34,632 bases of DNA from Eubacteriales bacterium (GTDB lineage: Bacteria > Bacillota > Clostridia > Christensenellales > Aristaeellaceae), in assembly GCA_028701335.1 (NCBI GenBank), contig JAQVQY010000004.1:12037-46668 (forward strand), read 5' to 3'. Below are positions 1-22,497 of this stretch, piece by piece. A program made the translations under genes and the position numbers. The notes beneath the pieces were generated by a model. That model saw only the letters and a list, made by a program, of their open reading frames with translations, did not search any database and was not told the DNA's origin. Position 1 is the stretch's first letter. Every line of letters begins with the position of its first letter.

Positions 1-1
1 G

Positions 2-58
2 AGCGTTGTTGACATCGAGGGGATTTCGCTGATCAAAACGACGGCTGTCACGGCGTAA
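2..58 (+). CDS. cas2: C-terminal end of Cas2 (type I-E, Cas2e), truncated by window start
   Basis: Open frame from base 2 to TAA at 56-58 reads SVVDIEGISLIKTTAVTA*. This resembles Cas2e tails of the (V)D(F/L)(D/E)G(L)xL type and sits directly upstream of a type I-E array. Not in the supplied ORF track. Confidence 0.6.
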   Translation, partial: SVVDIEGISLIKTTAVTA

Positions 59-98
59 ACCATTGATTTCATTCACTTTCTTGTTTTTTCGCTTAAGT
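59..98 (+). promoter_or_regulatory. Putative CRISPR leader (AT-rich gap between the cas2-like stop and repeat 1)
   Basis: AT-rich accattgatttcattcactttcttgttttttcgcttaagt immediately before the first repeat. The opposite end of the array is degenerate, which fits the leader being on the left. Confidence 0.55.
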
Positions 99-3000
99 AT
101 GCTCCCCACGCGCGTGGGGGTGAACCGCAATCACCATTTACACACCGCCTGCGGCAGCCCATGCTCCCCACGCGCGTGGGGGTGAACCGTGTTGCTGACA
201 CTCATGAATTAAAGATACTTACATGCTCCCCACGCGCGTGGGGGTGAACCGTTTACGGTTGGTATTATGGCAGATGGTGTGACATGCTCCCCACGCGCGT
301 GGGGGTGAACCGGACTACATCACCGCTACGCCCTGGGACGGGGTAAATGCTCCCCACGCGCGTGGGGGTGAACCGAAATACCTGGTTATCCTGATGCTCG
401 TCCTGGTATGCTCCCCACGCGCGTGGGGGTGAACCGTTGCAACATCATGCAACACCATGCAACATTCACATGCTCCCCACGCGCGTGGGGGTGAACCGGA
501 TGACCATGCCCATGGGGCAGGAACTGGTCACATGCTCCCCACGCGCGTGGGGGTGAACCGCTTCCTCTGGCCGGAAGCAGTAGATGATCGACATGCTCCC
601 CACGCGCGTGGGGGTGAACCGTACGCGGGCGCTCTACAATGCGATTGCGCCAAACATGCTCCCCACGCGCGTGGGGGTGAACCGGCTGCCCAGCAGGGCC
701 TTGCCTTTATGGCTGAATGCTCCCCACGCGCGTGGGGGTGAACCGGACTGAACGCCACCGTGGGCATGAAGCGCACATATGCTCCCCACGCGCGTGGGGG
801 TGAACCGGGCCTGATGGGCGACAAGTTCGCCGCCAACCTTCATGCTCCCCACGCGCGTGGGGGTGAACCGAGGAGGACAACATGAAAAGGACCGAAGCCT
901 ACAATGCTCCCCACGCGCGTGGGGGTGAACCGCAAGACGCAGAGTAGCAATCACCGCCGGGTCAATGCTCCCCACGCGCGTGGGGGTGAACCGACCTGTC
1001 AACCACATCGGAGCAGCTGGTCAAATCATGCTCCCCACGCGCGTGGGGGTGAACCGCACAACAATCTTGCGCACCTTAACAACGCTCACATGCTCCCCAC
1101 GCGCGTGGGGGTGAACCGCAAGCCGGTCATGTGGGAAATCCGGCCCATCACATGCTCCCCACGCGCGTGGGGGTGAACCGGAGCTTGGCCTTTTCCCGAT
1201 TTCAGGCGACACAATGCTCCCCACGCGCGTGGGGGTGAACCGGCTGTTTCTGCGCAGCCAACCGCTGCCAGTGACATGCTCCCCACGCGCGTGGGGGTGA
1301 ACCGTCCAATCTGCGCCCCCGCACGCTTGACCAGACATGCTCCCCACGCGCGTGGGGGTGAACCGCGAATGGGACGCATTTTCTAAAAAGATTGAACATG
1401 CTCCCCACGCGCGTGGGGGTGAACCGCTGAACAGCGCAGAAACCGGTGTGGCTGCCAATGCTCCCCACGCGCGTGGGGGTGAACCGCGCAAAATACCAGC
1501 GCCGCTGTTCAGATGGGATATGCTCCCCACGCGCGTGGGGGTGAACCGCGCTGGAGCCACAGGTGAGCCAGGCCATCAACGGATGCTCCCCACGCGCGTG
1601 GGGGTGAACCGTCAGACACATGCGTGTCCGGCCTTTTTGCGTTATGCTCCCCACGCGCGTGGGGGTGAACCGGAAGCCACCAAGGCCTATACCAATAAGC
1701 TGGTATGCTCCCCACGCGCGTGGGGGTGAACCGAGATACGGATATTGGTCCGACTCCGGGCCTATATGCTCCCCACGCGCGTGGGGGTGAACCGCGCTCT
1801 CCATATCCAGCGCCTTGACCGCCGCATGCTCCCCACGCGCGTGGGGGTGAACCGCGCCCATCCTCATAGCCGGGCACTTGATCCCCATGCTCCCCACGCG
1901 CGTGGGGGTGAACCAGACGGGCTTGCGGTAGCCGTCCTGCACGCCAAACATGCTCCCCACGCGCGTGGGGGTGAACCGGTGCTGATTGTGCGCCGGACGT
2001 ACAAGGAGCTGATGCTCCCCACGCGCGTGGGGGTGAACCGAATATGGGATAACCCTGATGGCTTGCCGCGCCTATGCTCCCCACGCGCGTGGGGGTGAAC
2101 CTTGCTTCGGGTTTCTTCTCGACTGCCATAAAGTCATGCTCCCCACGCGCGTGGGGGTGAACCGGGTGCTCACGCTCGACCTTGGCGATCTCAGCAATGC
2201 TCCCCACGCGCGTGGGGGTGAACCGGGTTTTAGCGGCTGGAAAATGGGTATGTCGCGATGCTCCCCACGCGCGTGGGGGTGAACCGCACGATGTCCATCT
2301 GCTTTTCTGTCAAATCTTATGCTCCCCACGCGCGTGGGGGTGAACCGAAATGGAGCTACGACAAAGGGGACCTCGGGGCGATGCTCCCCACGCGCGTGGG
2401 GGTGAACCGCGGGCAACAAAGCCACCGACTGGTCACCTGCCCATGCTCCCCACGCGCGTGGGGGTGAACCGACGGTCCAGGACTGGCTGCTGGTGACGGT
2501 ACGCATGCTCCCCACGCGCGTGGGGGTGAACCGAGCAGGCTCTCTCGACAACTCTCCCGGCGACCATGCTCCCCACGCGCGTGGGGGTGAACCGACAAAC
2601 GGCGCTTGGGTCAGGCTGACAGGCGCAATGCTCCCCACGCGCGTGGGGGTGAACCGACCGAACGGGAGTGAGTGAAACGGAGGCGGTCATGCTCCCCACG
2701 CGCGTGGGGGTGAACCGGCCTTCCAGGCGGTTGTTAACGCCATTGATACCATGCTCCCCACGCGCGTGGGGGTGAACCGGGCATCCTGTTTGAAAACATA
2801 AACGAATCCAGCATGCTCCCCACGCGCGTGGGGGTGAACCGTCTGTCGGGGGCCAATATTTGTCGAGCGGCACATGCTCCCCACGCGCGTGGGGGTGAAC
2901 CGTATTTCACGGTAGCCAACTCCGATACCGGCGGCATGCTCCCCACGCGCGTGGGGGTGAACCGCATCCCGGCATCTATCCTCCGTTGACGGGCAACATG

Positions 3001-6000
3001 CTCCCCACGCGCGTGGGGGTGAACCGCTTCATACTCGGGAGCGGGTTCAGGCGTAGGCATGCTCCCCACGCGCGTGGGGGTGAACCGAGCTGGGATGATT
3101 GCGAACCTGGAACGGATGAATGCTCCCCACGCGCGTGGGGGTGAACCGTCTGGTAGACTGGTTCAGGCGGGAGCTTAAATCATGCTCCCCACGCGCGTGG
3201 GGGTGAACCGGTTAACCCGGACATCATCGACCGGGTGAAGTACATGCTCCCCACGCGCGTGGGGGTGAACCGTTGAAGGTCGGCATGCGGTGGTTTGCGA
3301 GGCCATGCTCCCCACGCGCGTGGGGGTGAACCGAACCTTCTCATGACAAGGCAGGGCGAGGTACCATGCTCCCCACGCGCGTGGGGGTGAACCGCGCTAC
3401 AGTGAGGATACACCGATAAGGTGAATAATGCTCCCCACGCGCGTGGGGGTGAACCGGCAATAGGATCGGCATCAAGAAGTACAATATCATGCTCCCCACG
3501 CGCGTGGGGGTGAACCGGCGTCACCACCTGCCATCCCTGCGGGTACTGAATGCTCCCCACGCGCGTGGGGGTGAACCGGATAGTTATGTTGAGCTGTCCA
3601 GCAACGATACTCATGCTCCCCACGCGCGTGGGGGTGAACCGCTCAAATCACAGCGCTGGCAAGGCAGCGCAGACATGCTCCCCACGCGCGTGGGGGTGAA
3701 CCGTGTCAAGCCCGCTCCCCCCGGCCCTGTATCTGCATGCTCCCCACGCGCGTGGGGGTGAACCGCACTTATAGCGGAATCTGTGTCCGCGCGTACAAAT
3801 GCTCCCCACGCGCGTGGGGGTGAACCGCACAATTCTATTGCGTCAGGGGTCGCAAGGAACATGCTCCCCACGCGCGTGGGGGTGAACCTGCTGGACGAGA
3901 ACTTCATGACCGTGCCCTGGCATGCTCCCCACGCGCGTGGGGGTGAACCGACTACCTCAGCCAGCACCCTGGCGTCAAAACGGATGCTCCCCACGCGCGT
4001 GGGGGTGAACCGTGCAGTCCGCCAGGAGGTAGGTATGCAACCATACATGCTCCCCACGCGCGTGGGGGTGAACCGATGGCCCTGACAGACGCCATTTCCG
4101 TGGCCTGCATGCTCCCCACGCGCGTGGGGGTGAACCGAAAGGAGGCCCGCATGAGCGAAAGAACACAAGCAATGCTCCCCACGCGCGTGGGGGTGAACCG
4201 CAGGGGATCGCCTGGATATTGGAGGTAGAAGACATGCTCCCCACGCGCGTGGGGGTGAACCGCGTCTGAGCGCTACAAAGCCGCGATGATCGGGCATGCT
4301 CCCCACGCGCGTGGGGGTGAACCGCCACCCGCCGTACCAAAGGTGCGCCAGATCCACATGCTCCCCACGCGCGTGGGGGTGAACCCCCTGCGGCCTTCTC
4401 ATATGACTTCAGCGCTGCATGCTCCCCACGCGCGTGGGGGTGAACCGCTATGAGCAACATGCGTATCTACGATGCTTTCATGCTCCCCACGCGCGTGGGG
4501 GTGAACCGAGGCGTGAGCAAGTACGGCAACCGCAAGACCGATGCTCCCCACGCGCGTGGGGGTGAACCGTACAATATCAATGTACGAAAGTGGGCAAAGA
4601 GATGCTCCCCACGCGCGTGGGGGTGAACCGTCCGCCCTTTGGTTAGAGAAAGTAGGACATCGATGCTCCCCACGCGCGTGGGGGTGAACCGCCTCACCTC
4701 CCAGTGGTCGGTTCCGCCATACATGCTCCCCACGCGCGTGGGGGTGAACCGACTGACGCGTACCTGTTTGAGGACAAGCAGGCATGCTCCCCACGCGCGT
4801 GGGGGTGAACCGAAGAAAGGCACGGTGATAGGTGATGTATGGGAATGCTCCCCACGCGCGTGGGGGTGAACCGATGAGGCTGCCATGGAAAAGCAAGCCA
4901 CCTGCCATGCTCCCCACGCGCGTGGGGGTGAACCGTCTGTCGCCTGGGGCGAGCTGAAGAAGGCCAATGCTCCCCACGCGCGTGGGGGTGAACCGGCTTG
5001 ATTAGGTTCGGCGATGGCAGCATAATAATGCTCCCCACGCGCGTGGGGGTGAACCGGTGGACGTAGGCACCCTGGAATCCGCCCTGACCATGCTCCCCAC
5101 GCGCGTGGGGGTGAACCGGGAGATGACGCCAGCTACTCAAACGGGTATCGCATGCTCCCCACGCGCGTGGGGGTGAACCGCATCGTCGTCCTGAACGACC
5201 AGGGCGGCTCGCATGCTCCCCACGCGCGTGGGGGTGAACCGGTCAGGGAAGGCCAGATCGCTGGGGGACAGGTCATGCTCCCCACGCGCGTGGGGGTGAA
5301 CCGCACCCCGATCCGGATGATACGACCGTCAACGACATGCTCCCCACGCGCGTGGGGGTGAACCGCGCGGCTTGAATCCAATCCAATCCAATCCAATCCA
5401 TGCTCCCCACGCGCGTGGGGGTGAACCGAGCGCGTAGAAAGCGCCTGTAATGCGCTCAGGAATGCTCCCCACGCGCGTGGGGGTGAACCGCTTTTGGTAA
5501 AAAGAATTTTGCGTAACCTATTGCATGCTCCCCACGCGCGTGGGGGTGAACCTCGTGAAAGAAGTTGTTTCTTCTGCACCCCCGTCATGCTCCCCACGCG
5601 CGTGGGGGTGAACCGATGTACGTTTCCGGTCCGGTGGGCGTGAGTGCCATGCTCCCCACGCGCGTGGGGGTGAACCGGCGGATGAGGATGAAAACGGGGA
5701 CGTGGACTAATGCTCCCCACGCGCGTGGGGGTGAACCGATGCACGAGATCGCGGCCTGGGCGCTATCCGGATGCTCCCCACGCGCGTGGGGGTGAAGTCC
5801 AGCGTATGCGCTCAACCGCCGCCGTGTAAGGATGCTCCCCACGCGCGTGGGGGTGAACCGTAATACGGCGCCACCATGTCCAGCGATTCCTGGATGCTCC
5901 CCACACGCGTGGGGGTGAACCGGAATTCAACGCATATGATCGCATTATTGCGGGAAATGCTCCCCACACGCGTGGGGGTGAACCTAAGTGGATCAAGCTC

Positions 6001-6109
6001 ATGGTGGACATGTTTAACATGCTCCCCACACACGTAGGGGTGAACCGGCAAATGGTGGGGACCCCTACGGGACCGTGGTCATGCTCCCCACACACGTGGG
6101 GGTAATCCG
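99..6109 (+). CRISPR. Type I-E CRISPR array, 98 clear repeats
   Basis: 29-nt repeat ATGCTCCCCACGCGCGTGGGGGTGAACCG with internal CCCCACGCGCGTGGGG palindrome and I-E-style GTGAACCG end. Repeat starts run from 99 to 6081 at 60-63 bp spacing. Spacers appear unique. Confidence 0.99.
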
Positions 6110-6140
6110 ACGCATTCGTTTCCTAATGCGTCGTAAAACG

Positions 6141-6290
6141 GTTGGTCCCAGATGCGTGGGAGTGATCCTGGAAAGCACTTCGCACCTGATTCAACCAGGC
6201 CTGCTTCCTGAACAAGAAGGGGAAATTCGTGTCGCACTGGCAGCAAATTGCGTCACAGAGGATACTCCCCATTCATGCGAGGTTGGCAAC
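6141..6290 (+). repeat. Degenerate (fossil) CRISPR repeats beyond the trailer end
   Basis: 6141-6169 gttggtcccagatgcgtgggagtgatcct matches the repeat at about 18/29 positions, including GCGTGGG.GTGA.CC. Weaker candidates at 6201 (ctgcttcctgaacaagaaggggaaattcg) and 6262 (atactccccattcatgcgaggttggcaac) keep the 60-61 bp period. Confidence 0.6.
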
Positions 6291-6361
6291 TTCGAAAAGC
6301 GTTAGACAGCACCTTCCCAAATATTTTTCTCGTGCTCATACGGTCCAAAACAGCAGTTTAC

Positions 6362-6545
6362 CTACCCCCGCAGAACCCTGTTCCTCACCCGCCCCCACAG
6401 CACCTTCATCCCCTGCCTCAGATACCCGTCCAAGTGGCCTGACAGCCTTTCCAATCGCCGGGCGTGCCTTGCGCCAGGGCTTGAGCGCCTGCCAAGTGGC
6501 GCGGTACCGGATGCGAGCCAGGGTGCCCCTATCGCTTGGGGCCGC
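6362..6545 (-). pseudogene. Degenerate partial copy of the 3' end of the transglutaminase gene at 7262-9595
   Basis: Minus strand encodes GTLARIRYRATWQALKPWRKARPAIGKAVRPLGR, then after a frameshift YLRQGMKVLWGRVRNRVLRG. This parallels LALARIQYRAAWQTLKPWHKARLAISRAVRPLGGYLRRGVKGLWGRVRRKVRRG at the C-terminus of the full gene. DNA aligns at about 900 bp offset with a 1-nt insertion. Confidence 0.85.
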
Positions 6546-6571
6546 CGACAGCAAAAAAGCCTGCCGCCAAA

Positions 6572-6607
6572 AGAAAAAACCAGGGCAAATGGTACCACCC
6601 TGGTTTT
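6572..6607 (-). terminator. Intrinsic terminator of the glycine-zipper gene
   Basis: Perfect inverted repeat aaaaCCAGGG-caaatggtacca-CCCTGGtttt. On the minus strand it is followed by TTTTTTCTTTT, 16 nt after the stop codon at 6624. Confidence 0.85.
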
Positions 6608-6623
6608 GCCTGTGTGTTGAAGG

Positions 6624-6950
6624 TTATTTTTTGCTGATGGCGTTCTTGATGGCGCCGACAATGGCCGTGAGCAAAGCGCCGCCAGCGCCGCCGCCCAGAA
6701 TGCTGGCGATGATGCTGGTGATGTCCAGGCCCCCTGCCGAAACTGCCGGGGCGGCTGTTGCCGTGGCGGCCGCGGTGGCCGCGCCGATGCCCAGCAGGCG
6801 CAGCAGCTGGCCGCCGCCCAGGCCGCCAAGAAGGCCGGCAATGATGTTGCCGATGTTGCCCAAGGATACCTTGGGCGCGGCTTTGCCTGTGGCAGTTCCC
6901 CCAATAACACCGGATACGAGCTGGATGATGATCTGCACAATACCTGACAT
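6624..6950 (-). CDS. Small glycine-rich hydrophobic (glycine-zipper-like) protein, function unknown
   Basis: 108 aa MSGIVQIIIQLVSGVIGGTATGKAAPKV...AIVGAIKNAISKK. RBS GGAGAACAGC-ATG. Own terminator downstream. Confidence 0.8.
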   Translation of the reverse strand: MSGIVQIIIQLVSGVIGGTATGKAAPKVSLGNIGNIIAGLLGGLGGGQLLRLLGIGAATAAATATAAPAVSAGGLDITSIIASILGGGAGGALLTAIVGAIKNAISKK

Positions 6951-7261
6951 GCTGTTCTCCTTTCGCCAAATCCCTTGTTATTTTTTGCCGAGCAAACAAT
7001 ACGATGGTATCGTACCCGTTATTTTTGAATTGAATTGGGCAGGAGCGGAAGGTTTCAGGCATTTTGCGCGAAATTTTTGGCCGCGCTGTGACGCAACTGG
7101 GGAAAAGCCCTGGCGATGCCTTTATGGGCAGGCGGAGAAGCGCGGCCAGGGCGGGCAACCGGTGCGCCGTCTTGCCTGACAGCTCCGTTGCGCCGTCCCA
7201 GCATGGCCCGCTCCCTTTAAACCTCAGCCCGTGCGGGTCCGCTCCGGATGGAGCGCCGGGC

Positions 7262-9595
7262 TTAGCCCCGCCTCACCTTCCGGCGGACGCGCCCCCACAA
7301 GCCCTTCACCCCCCGCCTGAGATACCCGCCCAGTGGCCTGACAGCCCTGCTGATCGCCAGGCGCGCCTTGTGCCAGGGCTTGAGCGTCTGCCAGGCAGCG
7401 CGGTACTGGATGCGGGCGAGGGCGAGGCTGTCGCGATCGGGGGTGACCCGGCCATATTTGAGCGCGCTGTGGGCGCGGGCCAGGGCCATGAGGCCGGCGT
7501 CATCCGGATCGGTCCTGGACACATAGGAGATGGCGGTCTCCTGGGGCAGGATGCCCCGGCCCTGGGCTTTTAGCGTTGTGAGCAGCGCCTGCCAGAGGAT
7601 GGCGAAGGCTCCGCCGGGGTCTTTAAGTTTTGCAGCGCGGCGTTCCGGCTCCTCTTCCTTCACGCGCCAGATAAGGAGGCCCAGCAGCAGAAGCACAAGC
7701 AGCAGCCACCAAGGGAAGGGGTCATTCTCGTCATCCTGATCACCCTGCTGGGAGGTCTCCCCGGGGGCCGGAGTGGTGGTGGGCTCGGGCTCGCCCGGGG
7801 CGGGGGAGGGGCTGGGGCTCTCCTCGGGGCCTTCTTCCGGGCCCGGGGTGGGCTCAGGGGAAGGGGAGGGGCTGGGTGAGGGTTCGGGGCTTGGGGGCGG
7901 GCTTTGGGGCGGGGACTCGCCATCGCCATCGCCGTCCGAGGCGGTGGCGTCAAAGGTGACCCAGCCCAGGCCCTGGATGTAAATCTCCGTCCAGGCGTGG
8001 GCGTTGCGTGCGGTAAGCGTGATGGACTCCGCCCCCTGGGGATCGGCCAGGAAGCCCTCAACATACCTGGCGGGCAGGCCCAGGGAGCGGCTTAGCACCG
8101 TCATGGCGGTGGCGAAATAGGTGCAGTAGCCCTCCCTTATGTCAAAGAGGAAGTGGGAGGCGAAGTCCAGGGTGGGCGGTGCGTCCGGCACGTCCAGGGT
8201 GTAACGGAAGTTGGACTTCAGGTAGTTCATCAGCGCCACGCCCTGCTGGTAGGGGTCATGGATACTGCCCGCCACCTCCCGGGCCAGGGCATCGATGATG
8301 CCGCCGGGCTCCAGGTGGTCGGGTAGCCTGGTGTAGTCCTCCAGGATGTCCCCATAATCCGGGTCAGCATAGCCCCGGAAGCGCTCGGCCAGCCCGTCCA
8401 TATAGGCTGTGCCCGCCACATAACTTTCAAAGCCCGCGGTGTAGCTGTCCCCCTGCCTTAGGTCCCGGGTGATGAACAGCTCGGATGAGGCGTTGAAATA
8501 GGGCACCATCCCCTCTCCGGGTGCCAAGGCCCTTAAGCGCTGGGGCACAAAGAGGGTGGAGGGCATGGTGTCCAGGATCTCAACGGCAACTTCCAGCGGC
8601 TGCCCGCGCTCGCCGGCGGGCAGGTCCTCATCAAGCAGCGCGGATTTCAGCCCCGCAAAGCGCACCGACTGGAAGCCGTAGCGCTCGTTGGACAGGGTGT
8701 CAAACCAGGCCCGGCCGTTATAAAAGTCAAGGGCGGTACCCCGTAGGTAGGTCTTCTCCGGGGCATGCACGGCCATCAGCGGGCTGTCGGGGATCAGGGG
8801 CTTGCCGCCCAGACCTTCGTCCCCCATGGGCTGGTAGCCCTGGGAGGAAAGGGAGAACATGCGCCTGGAATCGGTGAAGAAGAAATAGTCCTCAACGGCC
8901 TGCCTCAAGCGGTCCGCCATCTGTTCCAACTGGGGCACTGTCTGCCGGGCGGCGGGGGTGAGCCAGGAGGCCAGCAGCGCCAGTATCAGCGCCAGGGCCA
9001 GGGCCTTCATTCCCCGGATTCTTTTGGGTTTGTTCTCCGGCACCGTAAGGGCGGCCTTGGCCTCCGCCGGATGCCCGTGGGCATACAGGAGCGGCAGGGA
9101 CAGCACCGCCGGGAAATACAGCGACAGGTCCTCCCTTGCGCCCGCGAACCAGAACATGAGCAGCGGCGCTGTGACCAGCGGCAGGGAAAAGGCCGGGTCC
9201 CCGTCCATAAGCAGCCGGGCGTAGAGCGCCAGAAGCAATAGCGTCATCGGGATCAGCGCGTCCAGATACCAGCGGGAGGCCTCCAGGGGCGCGGCGCCCG
9301 AGGCCAGCGTCCAGATGAAGTTAACGGCCCGGGCCGCAAGCGAGCCCGGAAAAAAGAAGGCGGGCAGAATAAGCGCGGCCAGAAGGCCCCCTGCCGCCAG
9401 CAGCCGCGCCGGCGGCCTAAGCCTTGAGAACAGCGCCAGCACCAGCGCCCAGACAAGGGCACACAGCAGGGCCCAGAGGTCCTCCGGCATCGCGTCCAGC
9501 AGCGCCAGCACCGGCCTTGAGAGCGCCCAGGCAATCAGCGCCGTCAGCAAAAAGCGCCCCAGCTCAGCCCTTATGAACTCACGCAGGCGTGACAT
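7262..9595 (-). CDS. Transglutaminase-like (TgpA-type) membrane protein
   Basis: N-terminal TM segments; transglutaminase core REGYCTYFATAMTVLSRSLGLPARYVEGFL and ARNAHAWTEIYIQGLGWVTFDAT; Pro/Ser/Glu-rich linker; C-terminal TM. Overlaps the upstream DUF58 gene. Confidence 0.92.
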   Translation of the reverse strand: MSRLREFIRAELGRFLLTALIAWALSRPVLALLDAMPEDLWALLCALVWALVLALFSRLRPPARLLAAGGLLAALILPAFFFPGSLAARAVNFIWTLASGAAPLEASRWYLDALIPMTLLLLALYARLLMDGDPAFSLPLVTAPLLMFWFAGAREDLSLYFPAVLSLPLLYAHGHPAEAKAALTVPENKPKRIRGMKALALALILALLASWLTPAARQTVPQLEQMADRLRQAVEDYFFFTDSRRMFSLSSQGYQPMGDEGLGGKPLIPDSPLMAVHAPEKTYLRGTALDFYNGRAWFDTLSNERYGFQSVRFAGLKSALLDEDLPAGERGQPLEVAVEILDTMPSTLFVPQRLRALAPGEGMVPYFNASSELFITRDLRQGDSYTAGFESYVAGTAYMDGLAERFRGYADPDYGDILEDYTRLPDHLEPGGIIDALAREVAGSIHDPYQQGVALMNYLKSNFRYTLDVPDAPPTLDFASHFLFDIREGYCTYFATAMTVLSRSLGLPARYVEGFLADPQGAESITLTARNAHAWTEIYIQGLGWVTFDATASDGDGDGESPPQSPPPSPEPSPSPSPSPEPTPGPEEGPEESPSPSPAPGEPEPTTTPAPGETSQQGDQDDENDPFPWWLLLVLLLLGLLIWRVKEEEPERRAAKLKDPGGAFAILWQALLTTLKAQGRGILPQETAISYVSRTDPDDAGLMALARAHSALKYGRVTPDRDSLALARIQYRAAWQTLKPWHKARLAISRAVRPLGGYLRRGVKGLWGRVRRKVRRG

Positions 9596-10730
9596 AGCAC
9601 ACCTCCACCAGGTTCTGCTGGAGCAGGGCGATATAGGGGCTGTATTCCGGGGCGTTGATGGTGAATGTGATTAAATAAAAGCGTACGTTGGGGCCGGAGG
9701 CACGGATGTTTTTGACCCCTTCGGCCACCGCGGCGTCAAGGCGTGTGGTGATAACGATGGTGGCCCCGGTGCGGCGCATGCGGCGCAGCTCCAGGTTTAA
9801 TACCCTTTCAAACGCCACCCCGCCGCTGAAGGACTGGCCGGCCAGCTCTTCCTTGAGCATATTCAGAGCGCCCTGCCGGTCGGCGTGGAACTCGCTCTGC
9901 CGCTCCCCATACAGGGGCACCCGTACGGGCTGGCCAGATGACATCTGCATGGCGGCCACCGACAGCGCCGTTTCCGCCAGCGTGTCGACCAGGCGGGCGC
10001 GGCCGTCCACCTTGCCTTCCCCGCCCTGGGGGGCTGTGCAGTCAAGCAGAATCAGGGTGTCCGGCGGCTCCGGGATCTCAAAGCGGCGCACGATCAGCTC
10101 CCGGCTGCGGGCGGACAGTTTCCAGTGGATGCGCTTGAAGGGGTCGCCCAGCCGGTAGTTGCGGGTGTCCTCGGGGGAGGTCACATCCTCTCCGCTCCTG
10201 CCCGGCAGCGCCCGGCCGTCGTCCATGCGGGCAAAATCCAGGGGCAGCACGTCAAAGCGCCGGGGCAGCACCAGGGCCTCCGGCAGGGGCTCCCTGACCT
10301 TTACCTTAAGCCTCAGGAGGCCGAAAAAATCCTGCAGGAACACCTTCCCCGCCCCCACGGGCCAGACGCCCACATGGGGGAAGCGCAGGGAAAAGGCGGC
10401 GCTCTCTTCCCTCATAAACCCCGCCTGCATCACGGCGTCCGCCTGGCCCTCAGGCAGCCTGAGCGGCAGGCGCACGGGGCCGATGGGCAGGGGGCTTTTC
10501 AGTTGAATGGTCACATGGAGCTTGCCGCCGTCCCCCCGCTCCAGCGTCTGGCTGTCCAGGCGCTGGGCAAAAGTGAGGGTATATCTGGCGGCGAAAAGGC
10601 TGATGACGGCATAGGCAAGCATCATGATCAGCGCCCAGGACACAAAATAAAAAACAGGCCCGCCCAGGGACAGGGCGGACAGGCCGGTGACCCCCAGCAC
10701 GCTTAAAACCGCCAGCAGGCGCCCGGTCAT
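9579..10730 (-). CDS. DUF58 domain-containing protein
   Basis: 383 aa; N-terminal TM pair and DUF58-type motif DVTSPEDTRNYRLGDPFKRIHWKLSARSRELIVRRFE. Confidence 0.92.
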   Translation of the reverse strand: MTGRLLAVLSVLGVTGLSALSLGGPVFYFVSWALIMMLAYAVISLFAARYTLTFAQRLDSQTLERGDGGKLHVTIQLKSPLPIGPVRLPLRLPEGQADAVMQAGFMREESAAFSLRFPHVGVWPVGAGKVFLQDFFGLLRLKVKVREPLPEALVLPRRFDVLPLDFARMDDGRALPGRSGEDVTSPEDTRNYRLGDPFKRIHWKLSARSRELIVRRFEIPEPPDTLILLDCTAPQGGEGKVDGRARLVDTLAETALSVAAMQMSSGQPVRVPLYGERQSEFHADRQGALNMLKEELAGQSFSGGVAFERVLNLELRRMRRTGATIVITTRLDAAVAEGVKNIRASGPNVRFYLITFTINAPEYSPYIALLQQNLVEVCYVTPA

Positions 10731-11677
10731 CCCTTGGCGCCCGGCACCGGCAAGGTGTCGATGATGTGCTTGAGCACTTCCTCCGCCGACACGCCTTTCA
10801 TTCGCGCTTCCGAGGTGAGGATAAGCCGGTGGGAGAGCACCGGCAAAGCCATCTGCCTGACATCGTCCGGCAGGATATACTCCCGGCCAAAGAGCATCGC
10901 CACAGCCTGGGCTGCGCGGATCAATGCAATGGCGCCCCTGGGGGACACGCCCAATTGAAGGGCAGGGTGGCTCCTGGTGGCGGCGGCGATGGTGGCCACG
11001 TAGCTGCGCACTTCCCGGCTGCAGTACACCGTGCCCACAGCGCCCTGAAGGGCGATGATCTCATCCGTGCCGCACACGGACTGGAGGGTTTTCAGTGGCG
11101 ACTCGGTGCCGGAAAAGCGGTCCAGCACGTCCATCTCCTCCTCAATGGAGGGGTAGCCGATGCGCACACGCAGGAAAAACCGGTCCATCTGCGCTTCCGG
11201 CAGGGGATAGGTGCCCACAAAGTCGATGGGGTTCTGCGTGGCCAAAACCATAAAGGGCTGGGGCAGCTGGCGGGTCACGCCGTCCACCGTCACCTGGGCC
11301 TCCTCCATCACCTCAAGCAAACTGGACTGGGTCTTGGGGGAGGTGCGGTTGATCTCGTCGGCCAGGAGGATCTGGGTCATCACCACGCCGGGCTTGAACT
11401 CCATATCCCCCGTCTGCATGTTGTACATGGTAAAGCCCGTCACGTCAGAGGGCGTTACATCGGGTGTAAACTGGATGCGCTTGAACGAACAGTCCAGCGA
11501 GCGGGCCAGGGCCGCGGCCAGCGTGGTTTTGCCCACGCCGGGCACGTCTTCAATCAGCACATGGCCCTTGCAGATGAGCGCGATGAGCGCCTGCTCAATG
11601 GCCTCGTCCTTGCCCACGATGACGCGGCGCACGTTGTTCTTCAGCGCGAATACCAGGTTTCGGGGGTCTATTGTCAT
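10727..11677 (-). CDS. MoxR-family AAA+ ATPase
   Basis: Walker A GVGKTTLAAALARSL, Walker B ILLADEINRTSPKTQSSLLEVMEE, ATQNPIDFVGTYPLPEAQMDRF. Start chosen at 11677 (MTIDPRN...) with GAAAGGAA RBS. ATGA overlap with the DUF58 gene. Confidence 0.93.
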   Translation of the reverse strand: MTIDPRNLVFALKNNVRRVIVGKDEAIEQALIALICKGHVLIEDVPGVGKTTLAAALARSLDCSFKRIQFTPDVTPSDVTGFTMYNMQTGDMEFKPGVVMTQILLADEINRTSPKTQSSLLEVMEEAQVTVDGVTRQLPQPFMVLATQNPIDFVGTYPLPEAQMDRFFLRVRIGYPSIEEEMDVLDRFSGTESPLKTLQSVCGTDEIIALQGAVGTVYCSREVRSYVATIAAATRSHPALQLGVSPRGAIALIRAAQAVAMLFGREYILPDDVRQMALPVLSHRLILTSEARMKGVSAEEVLKHIIDTLPVPGAKG

Positions 11678-11726
11678 GGGGATTCCTTTCGCTTTTCGGC
11701 CAGGCTTTTCCCGGCGCGGCGTCCCC

Positions 11727-11755
11727 ATTATACGGGGCGATAGGAAGATTTGCAA
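11727..11755 (-). promoter_or_regulatory. Sigma-A-type promoter for the moxR-DUF58-tgl operon
   Basis: On the minus strand: TTGCAA (11755-11750), 17 bp, TATAAT (11732-11727), about 50 bp upstream of the moxR start. Confidence 0.65.
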
Positions 11756-11780
11756 TTGTTTCGTAAAGAATGCGAAACAA
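11756..11780. repeat. Perfect inverted repeat TTGTTTCG-N9-CGAAACAA abutting the -35 (candidate operator)
   Basis: 8-bp perfect arms, 9-bp spacer, immediately upstream of the -35 hexamer at 11750-11755. Confidence 0.6.
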
Positions 11781-11845
11781 ATGGGGCCATTCTGCATGCC
11801 CCCAAACATGGTTCCTGTATCGCTTGCCCAATCAGAAGGGCTGGG

Positions 11846-12730
11846 TCAACGCTTTTGAGCCCGTTCCCTGGCCTTGAAATTCTGGCGGATATAGCCCGCG
11901 GCCAGGAAGAGGATGATCAATGTCATCACCACGGAGGCGGCCGAGGCGTAGCCCACTTTGAACATGTTCACGCCGTTATGGTAGATGTATTGGGTGATGG
12001 TGGCGGTGGTGTTGGCCGGGCCGCCTTTGGTGAGGATGTTCACCTTGTCAAAGAGGCGGAAGGTGTCGATGACCCGCAGCAGCGTCACCATCACCACGTT
12101 GTGGAAAATATTGGGCATGGTGACATAGTGGAACTGCGCCCATTTGCCCGCGCCGTCGATGGACGCGGCCTCATACTGCCCCTGGGGGATGCCCTGCATG
12201 GCGGCATAAAGCAAAAGGAAGGCAAAAGGCGTGTACTGCCAGATATCGATCACCAGGATGGCGTAAAAGGCGGTGTTCACATCTGTCAGCCAGCTGACCG
12301 GCCCAAGGCCAAACAGCCCCAGAAGGCTGTTGATGAGGCCATAGTTGTTGGACAGCATGATCTGCCAGATGAGCGCCACCGTAACCGGCGGCAGGAGGGT
12401 GGGCAGAAGCGTCACGGTGCGCAGCACTTCCTGCCCGCGCTTAAAGCTCTTCACCAGCACCGCCACCATCAGGCCCAGCGTTACCTCAAAGAGCACCGCC
12501 AGGGCGGTGAAGCGCAGGGTGTTGCCCAGGGCCTGCATGAAATACCGGTCCTTGAAAAGCTTGATGTAGTTGTCAAACAGGACAAACTGGGGCGGCCTGG
12601 TGGAGAGGTAATAATAGTCCGTCAGGCTGTACCAGAGGATAAAGAGCAGCGGAAACACGCTCAGCACCGTCAGGACCAGCATGGCGGGCGAGCTCATCAG
12701 GTAGGCGTAAAGGGTGTTGTTCTTTTTCAA
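11846..12730 (-). CDS. Carbohydrate ABC transporter permease (MalF-like)
   Basis: MFS-like hydrophobic protein with EAA-type loop YEAASIDGAGKWAQFHYVTMPNI. TTG start at 12730 preferred (CGGAGAATCAGC-TTG-AAA-AAG); the ORF track extends to 12784. Confidence 0.88.
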   Translation of the reverse strand: MKKNNTLYAYLMSSPAMLVLTVLSVFPLLFILWYSLTDYYYLSTRPPQFVLFDNYIKLFKDRYFMQALGNTLRFTALAVLFEVTLGLMVAVLVKSFKRGQEVLRTVTLLPTLLPPVTVALIWQIMLSNNYGLINSLLGLFGLGPVSWLTDVNTAFYAILVIDIWQYTPFAFLLLYAAMQGIPQGQYEAASIDGAGKWAQFHYVTMPNIFHNVVMVTLLRVIDTFRLFDKVNILTKGGPANTTATITQYIYHNGVNMFKVGYASAASVVMTLIILFLAAGYIRQNFKARERAQKR

Positions 12731-16818: not shown

Positions 16819-18762
16819 TTAGCACAACGCGTGGACAGGCGCAAGGCGGCCCATGGGGATGGCAGTGAGGTCCGACGCCTCAAACTCATCAAGGAAATCC
16901 TCATAGGGGACGGGGGTGATGTGGCGCTCCCAGTAGAGGGGCGGAGCGTCCTTCAGGCTTTCATAACGCTCCCTCAAAATGGCGCAAAGGTACTGGGCTT
17001 TACGCATGATGTGAGGGGAATTGAAAGCCTCCGGCAGTTCGTCCCCGGCCAGGAAGAGGGATTCAAAGATGCGCGCCCGGTCCTCCAGCGGAAAGGTGCG
17101 GGAATAGGCGTCGATGAACCAGGCATCCTCCGGATTTTCCCAGGCTTCCGGGTCATCAAAGGTATAGCGGGTGTCCGACAGCTCCAAGCCGTCTTCATCA
17201 TGGTAATCATAGTAGAAACCGGAATTTTCAGCCCCGGGCGGGCAGAGGAAAATCCAGTCAGACAGCAGGTCCCGCCCGACCGTTTCCGCGGGCATCGCCA
17301 GCCGGTCCTCAAAGAGGTGCATCAGCTCATGGGCCAGGCTTCTGGCGCCGCCCAGGGCGATGTAGCGCTCGTTCCCATGCATGGAGGCGAAGCCGCCCGG
17401 GGCAATGAGGCCATCCACCCCCCTGGTGCCGATGGGGCCTGAAAGGTAGACGGCCAGATGATCATAACCCGGCGTCAGCGTTTCCTGAAGCATCCCCGGC
17501 GGCAGGCGGTCCAGCTGCTCCTTGATGCTCATCAAGGAGACGGCCAGCGCCGGCTCCTCATCCAGAACCTGCCCATAATAAGTATCGTTCACAAAGCGCG
17601 CGCCTGCCTGGCGGATGTTGACCCGGATGCCATACTCCTCTATCAGGCTGGCCAGCGCGTCATTTTCCTCCCTGAGCCCTGATATGGTGGTCTGCGCCAT
17701 CCCGGCCGGTGCGCTGTGGGGCGACTGGCGATAGTCCCAGAGGTAGAGGCCAAAGCGGTTCAGTTCATACTGGTTGTCCGAAAGCACCGCGTAGCCCTGG
17801 TCAGAGAGCGCCACGCGGTCAAAGGTAATGGGCGTATCCCCTTGAGGCGCCTCAAGCTGCGCCACGACATTTCCTTTTTCCAGGTCAATGAGCCTCAGCG
17901 CCGGGCCCTCACCCCAGGCTTCGGTGATCAGGAGGCCCTGCTGGAAGCCCGCGACATACTCATCCTCCCGCCACGAGGAGAGGCGTATCACGCGCTCTTC
18001 GCCGGGAGCGGGCATAAAGAGGGCATCCCCGGGCCTGGTGGCATAGGCCAGGCCGCCGGTGGTCCCGATGAATCCTGCCATGACCGGGGTAAGCCGCGCT
18101 TGCCCCGAAGGGCCGACCGAAAAGAAGACCTCGTTACCCATACTGTTGGAAAACAGGGACAGCGCCTCACCCGATGGCTGAACGCCCAAAAAGCGGGAAA
18201 AATACCAGCCTGCCGGAAGCCCCGTGGGGTAAACGGCCGATTCCCCGGCCGCAAGATCAAAGCGGGTAAGGCCGGTACCCTCAAAACCGGCGCACCAGAG
18301 CGCCTGCCCTTTGGTGTCGGGGATAGCCAAATCAAAGCCGTCGGGCGGGGTAAATCGCAGGATTTCCTTCAAATCCTGGCCATAAACCGTGAGCCTCAGG
18401 TTCTCCTCGTGCAGGGTGTAGGGCTGCCCCGGCGCCCAGAAACCGATCTGCCAGATGTCGCCCCAGCCGGTGGTTTCAAGGGATATGGATTTAAGCGCCC
18501 GGGCGGAGCTTAAGTCATACAGGGTGAGGCTGCTTTCGGGCTGGTCCGGGCTGTTGCTGCGGATAAAGGCCAGCAGGTTCCCCTGCGCGGCCAGGGCCGC
18601 GTAATCCCCAAAGCCCCCGCCGGGAGAGAGTTCGTACACGTCCTCCTGAAAGGCCGGCCAGAACAGCCCCTGGAAGCGGGGCGCTGCGCCTGCGCGGGCC
18701 ACGGGCAGGATAAAAAGCACCGCCATCAGCGCAAAAAGCCACGCCTTAACCCGCCTTGCCAT
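16819..18762 (-). CDS. Secreted protein with HExxH zinc-metallopeptidase motif
   Basis: Start at 18762 (MARRVKAWLFALMAVLFILPVARAGA signal peptide, AAGGGGG RBS). Contains ARSLAHELMHLFEDRL (HELMH). The N-terminal ~350 aa look beta-rich and repetitive. Confidence 0.75.
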   Translation of the reverse strand: MARRVKAWLFALMAVLFILPVARAGAAPRFQGLFWPAFQEDVYELSPGGGFGDYAALAAQGNLLAFIRSNSPDQPESSLTLYDLSSARALKSISLETTGWGDIWQIGFWAPGQPYTLHEENLRLTVYGQDLKEILRFTPPDGFDLAIPDTKGQALWCAGFEGTGLTRFDLAAGESAVYPTGLPAGWYFSRFLGVQPSGEALSLFSNSMGNEVFFSVGPSGQARLTPVMAGFIGTTGGLAYATRPGDALFMPAPGEERVIRLSSWREDEYVAGFQQGLLITEAWGEGPALRLIDLEKGNVVAQLEAPQGDTPITFDRVALSDQGYAVLSDNQYELNRFGLYLWDYRQSPHSAPAGMAQTTISGLREENDALASLIEEYGIRVNIRQAGARFVNDTYYGQVLDEEPALAVSLMSIKEQLDRLPPGMLQETLTPGYDHLAVYLSGPIGTRGVDGLIAPGGFASMHGNERYIALGGARSLAHELMHLFEDRLAMPAETVGRDLLSDWIFLCPPGAENSGFYYDYHDEDGLELSDTRYTFDDPEAWENPEDAWFIDAYSRTFPLEDRARIFESLFLAGDELPEAFNSPHIMRKAQYLCAILRERYESLKDAPPLYWERHITPVPYEDFLDEFEASDLTAIPMGRLAPVHALC

Positions 18763-18824
18763 ACCGCACCCCCTTGTTTTGAGCCAACGTATCACGTGGG
18801 CCGGGTTTGCGTCAAGCAACGCGG

Positions 18825-18853
18825 TTGTCACCCTTGCGTCCACGCCTTATAAT
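18825..18853 (+). promoter_or_regulatory. Sigma-A-type promoter for DUF1292/uvrC
   Basis: TTGTCA (18825-18830), 17 bp, TATAAT (18848-18853), 29 nt before the DUF1292 ATG. Confidence 0.75.
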
Positions 18854-19193: not shown

Positions 19194-21032
19194 ATGACTG
19201 ATGAGCTGAAAACCAAGCTGGCGCTCCTGCCCGCTTCTCCCGGCTGCTACCTGTTCAAGCAGGGGGAGCAGATCCTCTATGTGGGCAAGGCTGTGAACCT
19301 GCAAAACCGGGTGCGCAGCTATTTCGCCGCCAATATCCCCTCCCCCAAGGTGCGGGCGCTGATGGCCCGGGTGGACGACCTGGAGGTGATCCTGGCGGCC
19401 AGTGAGCTGGAAGCGCTGATGCTGGAGAGCAACCTCATCAAGCTGCACCGCCCCTATTACAACATCAAACTGACCGATGACAAAAACTACCCCTATATCC
19501 GCATCACCCTGAACGAGCCTTACCCCAGGCTGGGCGTGGCGCGCAAGGTGGAGGATGACGGGGCGAAGTACTTTGGCCCCTACATCGGCACCGGGGCCAT
19601 CCGGCAGGTGATGGGGCTTTTGCGAAAAGTCTTCCCCATGCGCACCTGCCACTTGAATCTCCCCCTGCCCCGGCCACAGAGGCCCTGCCTGAGCTATGAA
19701 CTGGGGCAGTGCCTGGGCCCGTGCGGGGAGAAATGCACGCTGGAGGAATACCGCCAGGTGGCCGAGGAGACGGTGGCGTTCCTGAAGGGGCGCTATAAGC
19801 CTGTGGTGGATAAGCTGACCCGGATGATGGAGCAGGCGGCGTTGGAACTGCAGTTTGAGCGGGCGGCGGAACTCAGGGATGCCATTAAGGATGTGGAGGG
19901 CCTCATGGCACGCCAGAACGCCCAGCAGGTGGTGGGCGTGGACCAGGATGTGATCGCCGCGGCCCAGGACGGGCTGGACGCCATGGCCCAGGTGCTCCTG
20001 GTGCGCGGCGGCAAGATGATCTCCGCTGAGTCCTTCGCCCTGCCCCGGGAGGGGGCCGAGCCGCTGGAAGAGGTGGTTTCCGCCTTTATCCAGCAGTATT
20101 ACGAAGGCCGCCAGCCCCCCCGGGAAGTGGTGGCCCAGGCAGCGGACGACGCGCAGGTCCTGGAGGCGTGGCTCAAGGACAAGCGCGGGGACGCCTTTAC
20201 CCTCACCATCCCCCAGCGCGGGGGCAAGCGGCAGCTGGTGGAAAACGCCCTGGAAAACGCCCGGGACGCGTTGACCCGCCGGAACGCCCGGGACCAGGTG
20301 GTCTTTGAGCGCACCATCGGCGCCAGCCGGGAGCTGGCCGCCGCGCTCATCCTGCCGGAAGTGCCACGGCGCATCGAGGGCTTTGACATCTCCAACACCC
20401 AGGGCGCCCAGTCAGTGGCCAGCATGGTGGTGTTTATCGACGGGGAACCGGCGAAGAAGGAATACCGCCACTTCCGCATCAGGACGGTGGAGGGCATTGA
20501 TGACTTCGCCAGCATGAACGAGGTGCTGGAGCGCAGATTGAAGCGTTCTTTGCCAGGCCTGGAGAAACTCTGGCCGAAGCCTGATTTGATATTGGTGGAC
20601 GGGGGGCCGGAGCAACTGGCCTCTGCCCTCAGGGCCCGGGACGGCCTGGGGCTGGATATCCCCATATTCGGCCTGGCCAAGCGGATGGAGGAGATCTATC
20701 TGCCAAACGAGAGCGAGCCCATCCTGTTGGATCGGCACTCCCCGGCCCTGCACCTGATCCAGCGCATCCGGGATGAGGCGCACCGCTTTGCCATCACCCA
20801 CCACCGCAGCCTCCGCAGCAAAGCCACGGTGCGCTCGCGCCTGGAGGAGGTGCCGGGCATCGGCCCGGCCCGCAGGCGCGCGCTGCTGGCGGCCTTCCGC
20901 AGCATCAGGGGCGTATCTGAGCAAAGCGCGGAGGAGCTGGCAAAGGTCAAGGGCATGACCCGGGAGGCGGCGCAGAGGCTGTATGGCGCGCTGCACGAAA
21001 AGCCAGGGCAGGGAGATATACAGGATGCATGA
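19194..21032 (+). CDS. uvrC: Excinuclease ABC subunit C
   Basis: GIY-YIG N-terminus (PGCYLFKQGEQILYVGKAVNLQNRVRSYF), UVR motif, RNase H-like domain (RRIEGFDISNTQGAQSVASMVVF), helix-hairpin-helix C-terminus. Confidence 0.98.
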   Translation: MTDELKTKLALLPASPGCYLFKQGEQILYVGKAVNLQNRVRSYFAANIPSPKVRALMARVDDLEVILAASELEALMLESNLIKLHRPYYNIKLTDDKNYPYIRITLNEPYPRLGVARKVEDDGAKYFGPYIGTGAIRQVMGLLRKVFPMRTCHLNLPLPRPQRPCLSYELGQCLGPCGEKCTLEEYRQVAEETVAFLKGRYKPVVDKLTRMMEQAALELQFERAAELRDAIKDVEGLMARQNAQQVVGVDQDVIAAAQDGLDAMAQVLLVRGGKMISAESFALPREGAEPLEEVVSAFIQQYYEGRQPPREVVAQAADDAQVLEAWLKDKRGDAFTLTIPQRGGKRQLVENALENARDALTRRNARDQVVFERTIGASRELAAALILPEVPRRIEGFDISNTQGAQSVASMVVFIDGEPAKKEYRHFRIRTVEGIDDFASMNEVLERRLKRSLPGLEKLWPKPDLILVDGGPEQLASALRARDGLGLDIPIFGLAKRMEEIYLPNESEPILLDRHSPALHLIQRIRDEAHRFAITHHRSLRSKATVRSRLEEVPGIGPARRRALLAAFRSIRGVSEQSAEELAKVKGMTREAAQRLYGALHEKPGQGDIQDA

Positions 21033-22497
21033 AAAACAAAGGACCAATCGTTTGATTGATAAGCGGCGCCGCTGGCGGGCTGTGTTGGCGGGGTTCCTGG
21101 CGGGGGTGTTCCTGCTTTCCCCGGTGTTGGCGGAGACCGGCGGCCTGGCGGGGGAAGCCAGCCTGGAGATCGCCGCCTGGCCGGACCTGGCCCAGGAATC
21201 CTTTTTGGCCATGCAGGAGTGGCTGAGCGGCTTAAGCCTTAAGCTGTATGCCGGGGAGGGCCGGAGCGCCTTCACCCTGCTTGACTCAGGGCGGGAGGTG
21301 CTGAGGGCTGACAGCCGGCAGGCAGGCGGGGAGCACAGCCTCCTGCTCACGGTGCCGGGGGCGCTTGCCCCCACGGAATACCTGGGGACCCTGGACGCGC
21401 AGCCCCTGGAGACGCTTTTTGGTGCGCCGGCGCTGCCGGATTTTACCGGCATCCCCGAAGCCCTGCCGGGCCTCACCCAGGCGCTGCTGGAAGGGCTAAA
21501 GCCTTTTGAGGTGAGCCAGGCCACCAGGACCACCATTAAAAGGGTGGGCCGCGCGGAAAGCCGGCTGAACCATGCCCTGAGCGCAGATGAGGCCAACGCT
21601 TGGTGGCAGGCGGCCCTGCCCAATGTGCGGGTGATTGTTCAGGAGGGCATGGCAGGCCTTCCCCGCGCCTGGCGGGAAAAAGCGGACCAGGCCCTGTCCA
21701 CCTTCCGGTTTACGGGTAAACTCACCTTACGGCGCCTGCTGGACGAGGCAGAAGGCGATCTGGGATTTCAGGTGACGGCCGGGATCGAGGTTTTTGGCGA
21801 GGCCAGGAAATTGGACCTCACCGCGGGTTACCGGGCGGAAACGGGCTTGTACATCAGCTTTAAACTCCCCGCGGCCCGGGGGCGGGACAAGCTGGAAGCG
21901 CTGGTTTCCCTGGCTTTCACCCAAAAGGAGGATGTGTCACACATCAAAGGGGATTACAGCCTGAGCGAAGTGCTGGAAGGGGACAAGCGTGTCCTGAGCG
22001 GCAAGATCGACCTGGCCCGGACCCCTGAGCCAGGGGGCGGGCGCCTGACGGGTACGCTGACAGTCCTGGCCCGCTATGCCGGCAGCGTGACGCTCAAGCG
22101 GGATCACCTCCTGAAGCCTGATGTTATGCTGCTGGCGGATGGGATAGCCGGGACGCTCAACTGGACGGAAGCCGAGGGGAAAACGGCGCTGAGGGATTTG
22201 ACGCTCAGCCTTCGTTTGAGCCCGGGGGCGGCGCCGGAGGAGACAGCGCCCCAGGCCCGGGTGGACTTAAGGGAAGCGCCCCAGGCGGCACGGGAACACG
22301 CCGCCCGGCAGGCGGCTGAGGCGCTGGTACCTTATCTTCAGGAGAGGACGCTCCAGATGCCACAGGATACCCGGCTATTGGTTTTACACGATTGGGGGCG
22401 TGTGCGCCGCGCCTTGATGGAGAGCAGCACACAGCTGCTCCCGGGCAGCGGACCAGGCGCCTACACCGTGACGGAAGACACGGACACTCTACCCTAA
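21025..22497 (+). CDS. Secreted or membrane-anchored protein of unknown function
   Basis: MHEKQRTNRLIDKRRRWRAVLAGFLAGVFLLSPVLAE signal/anchor. ATG overlaps the uvrC stop. Confidence 0.75.
   Translation: MHEKQRTNRLIDKRRRWRAVLAGFLAGVFLLSPVLAETGGLAGEASLEIAAWPDLAQESFLAMQEWLSGLSLKLYAGEGRSAFTLLDSGREVLRADSRQAGGEHSLLLTVPGALAPTEYLGTLDAQPLETLFGAPALPDFTGIPEALPGLTQALLEGLKPFEVSQATRTTIKRVGRAESRLNHALSADEANAWWQAALPNVRVIVQEGMAGLPRAWREKADQALSTFRFTGKLTLRRLLDEAEGDLGFQVTAGIEVFGEARKLDLTAGYRAETGLYISFKLPAARGRDKLEALVSLAFTQKEDVSHIKGDYSLSEVLEGDKRVLSGKIDLARTPEPGGGRLTGTLTVLARYAGSVTLKRDHLLKPDVMLLADGIAGTLNWTEAEGKTALRDLTLSLRLSPGAAPEETAPQARVDLREAPQAAREHAARQAAEALVPYLQERTLQMPQDTRLLVLHDWGRVRRALMESSTQLLPGSGPGAYTVTEDTDTLP

What the first reader, a model, noticed from the sequence alone, without database searches (positions are those of the whole stretch)
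99..6169. Exceptionally long type I-E CRISPR array: 98 clear repeats plus decayed ones
Sequence: hand enumeration of ATGCTCCCC starts gives 98 repeats (99 to 6081) with spacers that look unique on inspection. Inference: this is a long-lived, heavily used immune record, and such depth is uncommon for a single I-E locus. Its spacers are a direct record of the host's mobile-element exposure.
Basis: partly seen in the sequence, partly recalled or inferred. Interest (0 to 1): 0.7.

Follow-up and report, generated by a model that had tools for sequence, protein, structure and literature searches.

The report
Long but ordinary type I-E CRISPR array
This is a real, unusually long (98-repeat) memory bank of a complete type I-E CRISPR immune system in an uncultured anaerobic bacterium, with spacers that match tailed phages and prophages of close relatives; it is a large example of a well-known kind of system.

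Summary
In detail: 98 repeats of a 29-nt unit start at window 99 and end at 6109, with 97 unique spacers of 31-34 nt. Repeats 95-98 carry mutations, and a heavily decayed 99th repeat lies in register at 6141-6169. Upstream on the same contig is a complete I-E operon (cas3, cas8e, cse2, cas7, cas5, cas6e, cas1e, cas2e), so the subtype is right. Seven spacers have matches in phage or prophage genes (terminase, tail and others), mostly next to AAG; reversed and shuffled spacers give none. "Exceptionally long" is overstated. About 3.5% of I-E arrays are expected to be this long under a published fit, I-E maxima are 239-246 spacers, and relatives here reach 99-122 repeats. An assembly gap with an exact 127-bp overlap sits right after repeat 1, which suggests several alternative first spacers in the population. 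A side finding is a strong 3'-terminal C bias of spacers (59/97). Across 53 I-E arrays this bias grows with spacer-length looseness, and it matches the known C/A preference of E. coli Cas1. Verdict: a new member of a known kind, of low interest.

The parts
1..58 (+). 3' end of cas2e (TAA at 56-58), repeated here because of an assembly overlap; the whole gene is at contig C27:11586-11867, upstream of the window
   Evidence: C27:12037-12163 is identical to C27:11810-11936 (127 bp) across a 100-N gap; Cas2e by TIGR01873 and PF09707
59..98 (+). leader: only 40 bp between the cas2e stop and repeat 1, AT-rich
   Evidence: no sigma-70-like promoter found in C27:11500-12200
99..6109 (+). CRISPR array: 98 repeats of 29 nt, 97 unique spacers of 31-34 nt
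   Evidence: independent finder
5771..6109 (+). trailer-end repeats; 93 and 95-98 carry 1-4 substitutions (decay)
6141..6169 (+). heavily decayed 99th repeat, 18/29 identical and in register
376..407 (+). spacer 5: 32/32 match to a prophage-like contig of a same-genus genome (G268:C83), PAM AAG
499..531 (+). spacer 7: 31/33 match in a minor tail protein gene of a prophage (G268:C12), flank CAG
871..903 (+). spacer 13: 32/33 match in the tail gene cluster of the same prophage (beside the tail sheath gene), PAM AAG
1612..1643 (+). spacer 25: 32/32 match in a phage-like contig of a same-family genome (G199:C119), flank AGG
1673..1704 (+). spacer 26: terminase large subunit gene, 3-4 mismatches in the best relatives, PAM AAG
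4076..4108 (+). spacer 65: conserved phage peptide MALTDAISVAC, 4 mismatches to two IMG/VR contigs flanked by AAG
5678..5709 (+). spacer 91: terminase large subunit gene, 1 mismatch to IMG/VR contig L136, PAM AAG
2165..2196 (+). spacer 34: resembles a rubrerythrin gene (6-7 mismatches in genus members, no AAG)

Best explanation
[quoted passage not shown] Cas1e-Cas2e take up 31-34-nt pieces of invading phage DNA next to an AAG-type PAM and insert them at the leader end. The transcript is cut by Cas6e at the repeat hairpin, and Cascade (Cas8e, Cse2, Cas7, Cas5, Cas6e) with Cas3 destroys matching phage DNA. Shown here: the array, the operon, the targets and the PAM. Inferred from the family: expression, processing and interference. 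Inferred from the assembly: ongoing acquisition at the leader end.
For: 98 repeats and 97 unique spacers. All eight I-E cas genes are adjacent and in the same orientation; all score above Pfam cut-offs, and each scores above an NCBIfam I-E-specific or Cas3-domain cut-off. Repeats 95-98 and the 99th decay at the trailer end. Spacer hits with 6 or fewer mismatches in 203 phage or prophage loci: 72, against 0 for reversed and 0 for shuffled spacers. Targets are terminase, tail and other phage genes. 5' flanks are AAG for spacers 5, 13, 26, 91 and for the two closest AAG-flanked relatives of 65, AGG for 25, CAG for 7. The last repeat base is G in 91 of 98, as expected if it derives from the PAM (PMC8482600). 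The repeat folds into a hairpin of -12.4 kcal/mol.
Against: No expression or interference data. The repeat hairpin is no stronger than shuffles of the same composition (z -1.15). No sigma-70-like promoter was found before the array. Only 7 of 97 spacers have a phage target in the collections used.
Confidence: 0.96

Rival explanations
1. The array is a fossil: adaptation has stopped and the 98 units are kept without use.
For: Trailer-end repeats are decayed; no promoter-like site was found near the leader.
Against: The leader-end 92 repeats are almost perfect. All cas genes are open and full length. Two spacers match contigs of relatives without a mismatch. The assembly breaks exactly after repeat 1 with a 127-bp overlap, as expected if several first spacers exist in the population.
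Confidence: 0.06
2. The 100-N gap with duplicated 127 bp means that the array is really longer or that two arrays exist.
For: A repeat stands on both sides of the gap.
Against: The copy after the gap begins with the end of cas2e and the leader, so it starts at the leader itself. The exact 127-bp identity is what an assembler with k = 127 leaves at a branch point. No other copy of this repeat occurs in the assembled genome.
Confidence: 0.05
3. The 3'-terminal C bias reflects a 30-nt repeat with a loosely kept first C, not a preference of the integrase.
For: 33-nt spacers end in C more often (32/45) than 32-nt spacers (17/36).
Against: 32-nt spacers are enriched as well (p = 0.009). The base before repeat 1 in the leader is T. 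The penultimate base and the first base show no such trend across arrays. The one mapped terminal-C spacer with a near-perfect target (sp7) has that C in its target.
Confidence: 0.15

Closest known systems
Type I-E CRISPR-Cas of Escherichia coli K-12 (cas3-cse1-cse2-cas7-cas5-cas6e-cas1-cas2)
   Same: Gene content and order, 29-nt repeat ending in GAACCG, about 32-33-nt spacers, AAG-type PAM, last repeat base G (E. coli details from own knowledge and PMC10011333)
   Different: 98 repeats in one array, looser spacer length (31-34), only 40 bp between cas2e and repeat 1, strong 3'-terminal C in spacers
I-E locus of the same-genus MAG 'Clostridiales bacterium isolate AS07pgkLD_4' (L013, JAAYFC010000073.1; by length and array the same contig as G270:C152)
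   Same: Cas1e 80% identical, operon-like series of ORFs of matching sizes, repeat differing at one base, array directly after cas2
   Different: 19 repeats only, mostly 32-nt spacers
Long I-E arrays of Acidobacteria MAGs (L034 122, L070 119, L069 104 repeats) and of same-family genomes G058 (105) and G234 (99)
   Same: I-E-type repeats, comparable or greater length
   Different: Other lineages; the Acidobacteria arrays have near-uniform spacer length

Membership tests
Type I-E CRISPR-Cas | Signature cas8e/cse1 and cse2 (cas11) | tested here: met
   TIGR02547 110 bits (cut-off 70), TIGR02548 51 bits (cut-off 28.5), PF09481 198 bits
Type I-E CRISPR-Cas | cas7, cas5, cas6e of the I-E subtype in one operon | tested here: met
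   TIGR01869, TIGR01868, TIGR01907 all above cut-off
Type I-E CRISPR-Cas | Cas3 with HD and helicase domains | tested here: met
   PF18019, PF22590, TIGR01587, TIGR01596 above cut-off; the full-length PRK09694 model is below its own cut-off
Type I-E CRISPR-Cas | I-E type Cas1 and Cas2, no Cas4 | tested here: met
   TIGR03638 344 bits, TIGR01873 68 bits; no cas4 among the eight operon genes
Type I-E CRISPR-Cas | About 29-nt repeat with stem-loop and 32-33-nt spacers | tested here: met
   hairpin, though not stronger than shuffles
Type I-E CRISPR-Cas | PAM of the AAG type, last repeat base taken from the PAM | tested here: met
   small number of protospacers (7 spacers with flanks)
Type I-E CRISPR-Cas | crRNA production and interference | not testable with these tools
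   needs RNA or plasmid/phage assays
Exceptionally long arrays | Length beyond the known I-E range | tested here: not met

The most novel reading that the evidence does not exclude
In a broad set of I-E systems the non-PAM end of the new spacer is chosen by base (a 3'-terminal C) rather than by a strict length ruler. Arrays with variable spacer length show the strongest terminal-C bias (Spearman 0.51 over 53 arrays; 61% C here against 28% inside the spacers). This would make spacer-length looseness and nucleophile choice two sides of one property of Cas1-Cas2.
Probability: 0.3. Interest if true: 0.35.

Novelty: new member of a known kind. Interest (0 to 1): 0.2.

Why it matters
The array is a readable record of phage pressure on an uncultured anaerobic bacterium and links it to specific tailed phages. 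The terminal-C pattern in it, and in related arrays, offers a cheap natural-data test of how Cas1-Cas2e choose the end of a new spacer. Neither changes what is known about how type I-E systems work.

Tried and rejected
Phage (INPHARED) and plasmid (PLSDB) collections gave only chance-level hits with E around 0.2-0.5 (the plasmid search used only the first 46 spacers, and spacer 86, a simple repeat, was left out of the phage and whole-genome searches). An exact scan of spacer 31 in IMG/VR found nothing. Self-targeting: the only own-genome match besides the array is a 23-nt partial match of spacer 34 to a rubrerythrin gene, with 7 mismatches over the spacer and no AAG, so it is not a self-target. 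A second repeat type for the second I-E operon on C155 was sought in the own genome and not found. Rfam gave no hit in the array region. A further decayed repeat at 6262 (16-17/29) was rejected because it is within background and out of register.

Full report
What is there. A scan for the 29-nt unit ATGCTCCCCACGCGCGTGGGGGTGAACCG finds 98 copies with starts from 99 to 6081, with 97 spacers of 31-34 nt, all different. A second array finder agrees. Repeats 95-98 carry 1-4 changes, and a 99th, strongly decayed copy lies in register at 6141-6169.

Which system. The window is G000:C27:12037-46668 of a 2.09-Mb, 166-contig genome. The DNA left of the window on the same contig holds cas3 (3482-6109), cas8e/cse1 (6099-7628), cse2 (7621-8199), cas7 (8201-9307), cas5 (9312-10034), cas6e (10036-10677), cas1e (10661-11605) and cas2e (11586-11867), all on the strand of the array. 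Their I-E identity is given by NCBIfam and Pfam. Only 40 bp separate the cas2e stop from repeat 1.

An assembly feature that matters. Between the operon and the window start lie 100 N, flanked by two identical copies of 127 bp (end of cas2e, leader, repeat 1). An exact 127-bp overlap is what an assembler with k = 127 leaves where its graph branches (own knowledge of such assemblers). The branch comes right after repeat 1. This suggests two or more alternative first spacers in the sampled population, that is, live acquisition. Without reads this remains an inference. It also means that the 98-repeat array starts at its own leader and was not cut.

What it targets. A search of 308 same-family genomes with all spacers except spacer 86 (a simple repeat) found 32/32 matches of spacers 5 and 25 and a 32/33 match of spacer 13. 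The fetched contigs carry phage genes: terminase, portal, protease and major head protein in L128; tail sheath, tape measure and minor tail in L130; endolysin and a reverse transcriptase in L129. Spacers 7, 26 and 91 fall in the same contigs. Relatives of these phages were pulled from IMG/VR, and all 97 spacers were scanned against 203 loci (2.36 Mb). There were 72 matches with 6 or fewer mismatches, against none for reversed and none for shuffled spacers. The raw count is dominated by two spacers (26 and 91) that hit many terminase homologues, so it shows phage origin of those spacers rather than 72 independent targets. Spacer 65 corresponds to a conserved peptide of a phage gene. The 5' flanks are AAG for spacers 5, 13, 26, 91 and for two close relatives of 65, AGG for 25 and CAG for 7. 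AAG is a known I-E PAM, and the last repeat base G is known to be PAM-derived (PMC8482600). Here 91 of 98 repeats end in G.

How unusual is the length. A survey of 226 I-E systems gives mean 30, median 19, third quartile 37 and maximum 239 spacers, with a geometric parameter of 0.034 (PMC5575924). Under that fit 97 or more spacers are expected in about 3.5%. A 2026 survey reports up to 246 spacers for I-E, with a median of 9 over all arrays (PMC12814883), and the longest array known overall has 587 (PMC7145573). Among I-E loci fetched here through Cas1e relatives plus the family search, the array ranks fourth of 38 that are complete within the fetched DNA (122, 119, 104, 98). That set includes one locus twice and is capped by flank length. 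In the same family two genomes carry 105 and 99 matching repeats, counted as totals per genome. So the array is long and uncommon, but not exceptional.

A side finding. Spacers here end in C in 59 of 97 cases (A 19, G 11, T 8), against 27.6% C inside the spacers (p = 9e-12). Across 53 arrays with 14 or more spacers the terminal-C excess rises with the share of spacers off the modal length (Spearman 0.51, p = 1e-4). The penultimate base and the first base do not show this. The arrays are phylogenetically related and repeat boundaries were set by script; a few, such as L061's first array and L068, were probably framed wrongly, so the test is exploratory. In vitro, E. coli Cas1 prefers C or A over G and T at the incoming 3' end (PMC4574026), in line with the order seen here. 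The simplest reading is that in these systems the non-PAM end is trimmed or chosen at a C within a loose length window.

Conclusion. This is a complete, standard type I-E system with a long array. It is a new member of a known kind. Mechanistic steps after acquisition are taken from the family, not shown here.

Noticed in passing
C27:11810-12163 (window 1-127): A 100-N gap flanked by an exact 127-bp overlap directly after repeat 1, the mark of a k=127 assembly branch; suggests several alternative first spacers in the population.
   Followed up: partly
window 99-6109 and 52 related arrays: Spacers end in C far more often than expected, and more so in arrays with variable spacer length.
   Followed up: partly
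G000:C155 (L012) 3-4521: A second, partial I-E operon on a 4.5-kb contig of the same genome (cas8e by Pfam; the ORFs after it look like cse2, cas7, cas5 and the start of cas6e). No array with a GC-type repeat was found in this genome, while a same-genus genome (G271) carries such a repeat.
   Followed up: partly
window 2165-2196 (spacer 34): Spacer resembles a rubrerythrin gene of same-genus genomes (6-7 mismatches, no AAG flank), an unusual target for a CRISPR spacer.
   Followed up: partly
L129 (G268:C83): Prophage-like contig hit by spacer 5 carries a reverse transcriptase and two similar stretches that look like a diversity-generating retroelement; identified by PHROG for the reverse transcriptase and by reading for the repeats.
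   Followed up: no
window 6387-6523 and 7287-7422: A 137-bp stretch with 83% identity to the 3' end of the transglutaminase-like gene (7262-9595) stands beside the array: a partial gene duplication or remnant.
   Followed up: partly
window 16819-18843, 20983-22497, 22514-24064: Open reading frames of 674, 504 and 516 aa without any Pfam match, between ordinary chromosomal genes (pyruvate kinase, UvrC, Obg).
   Followed up: no
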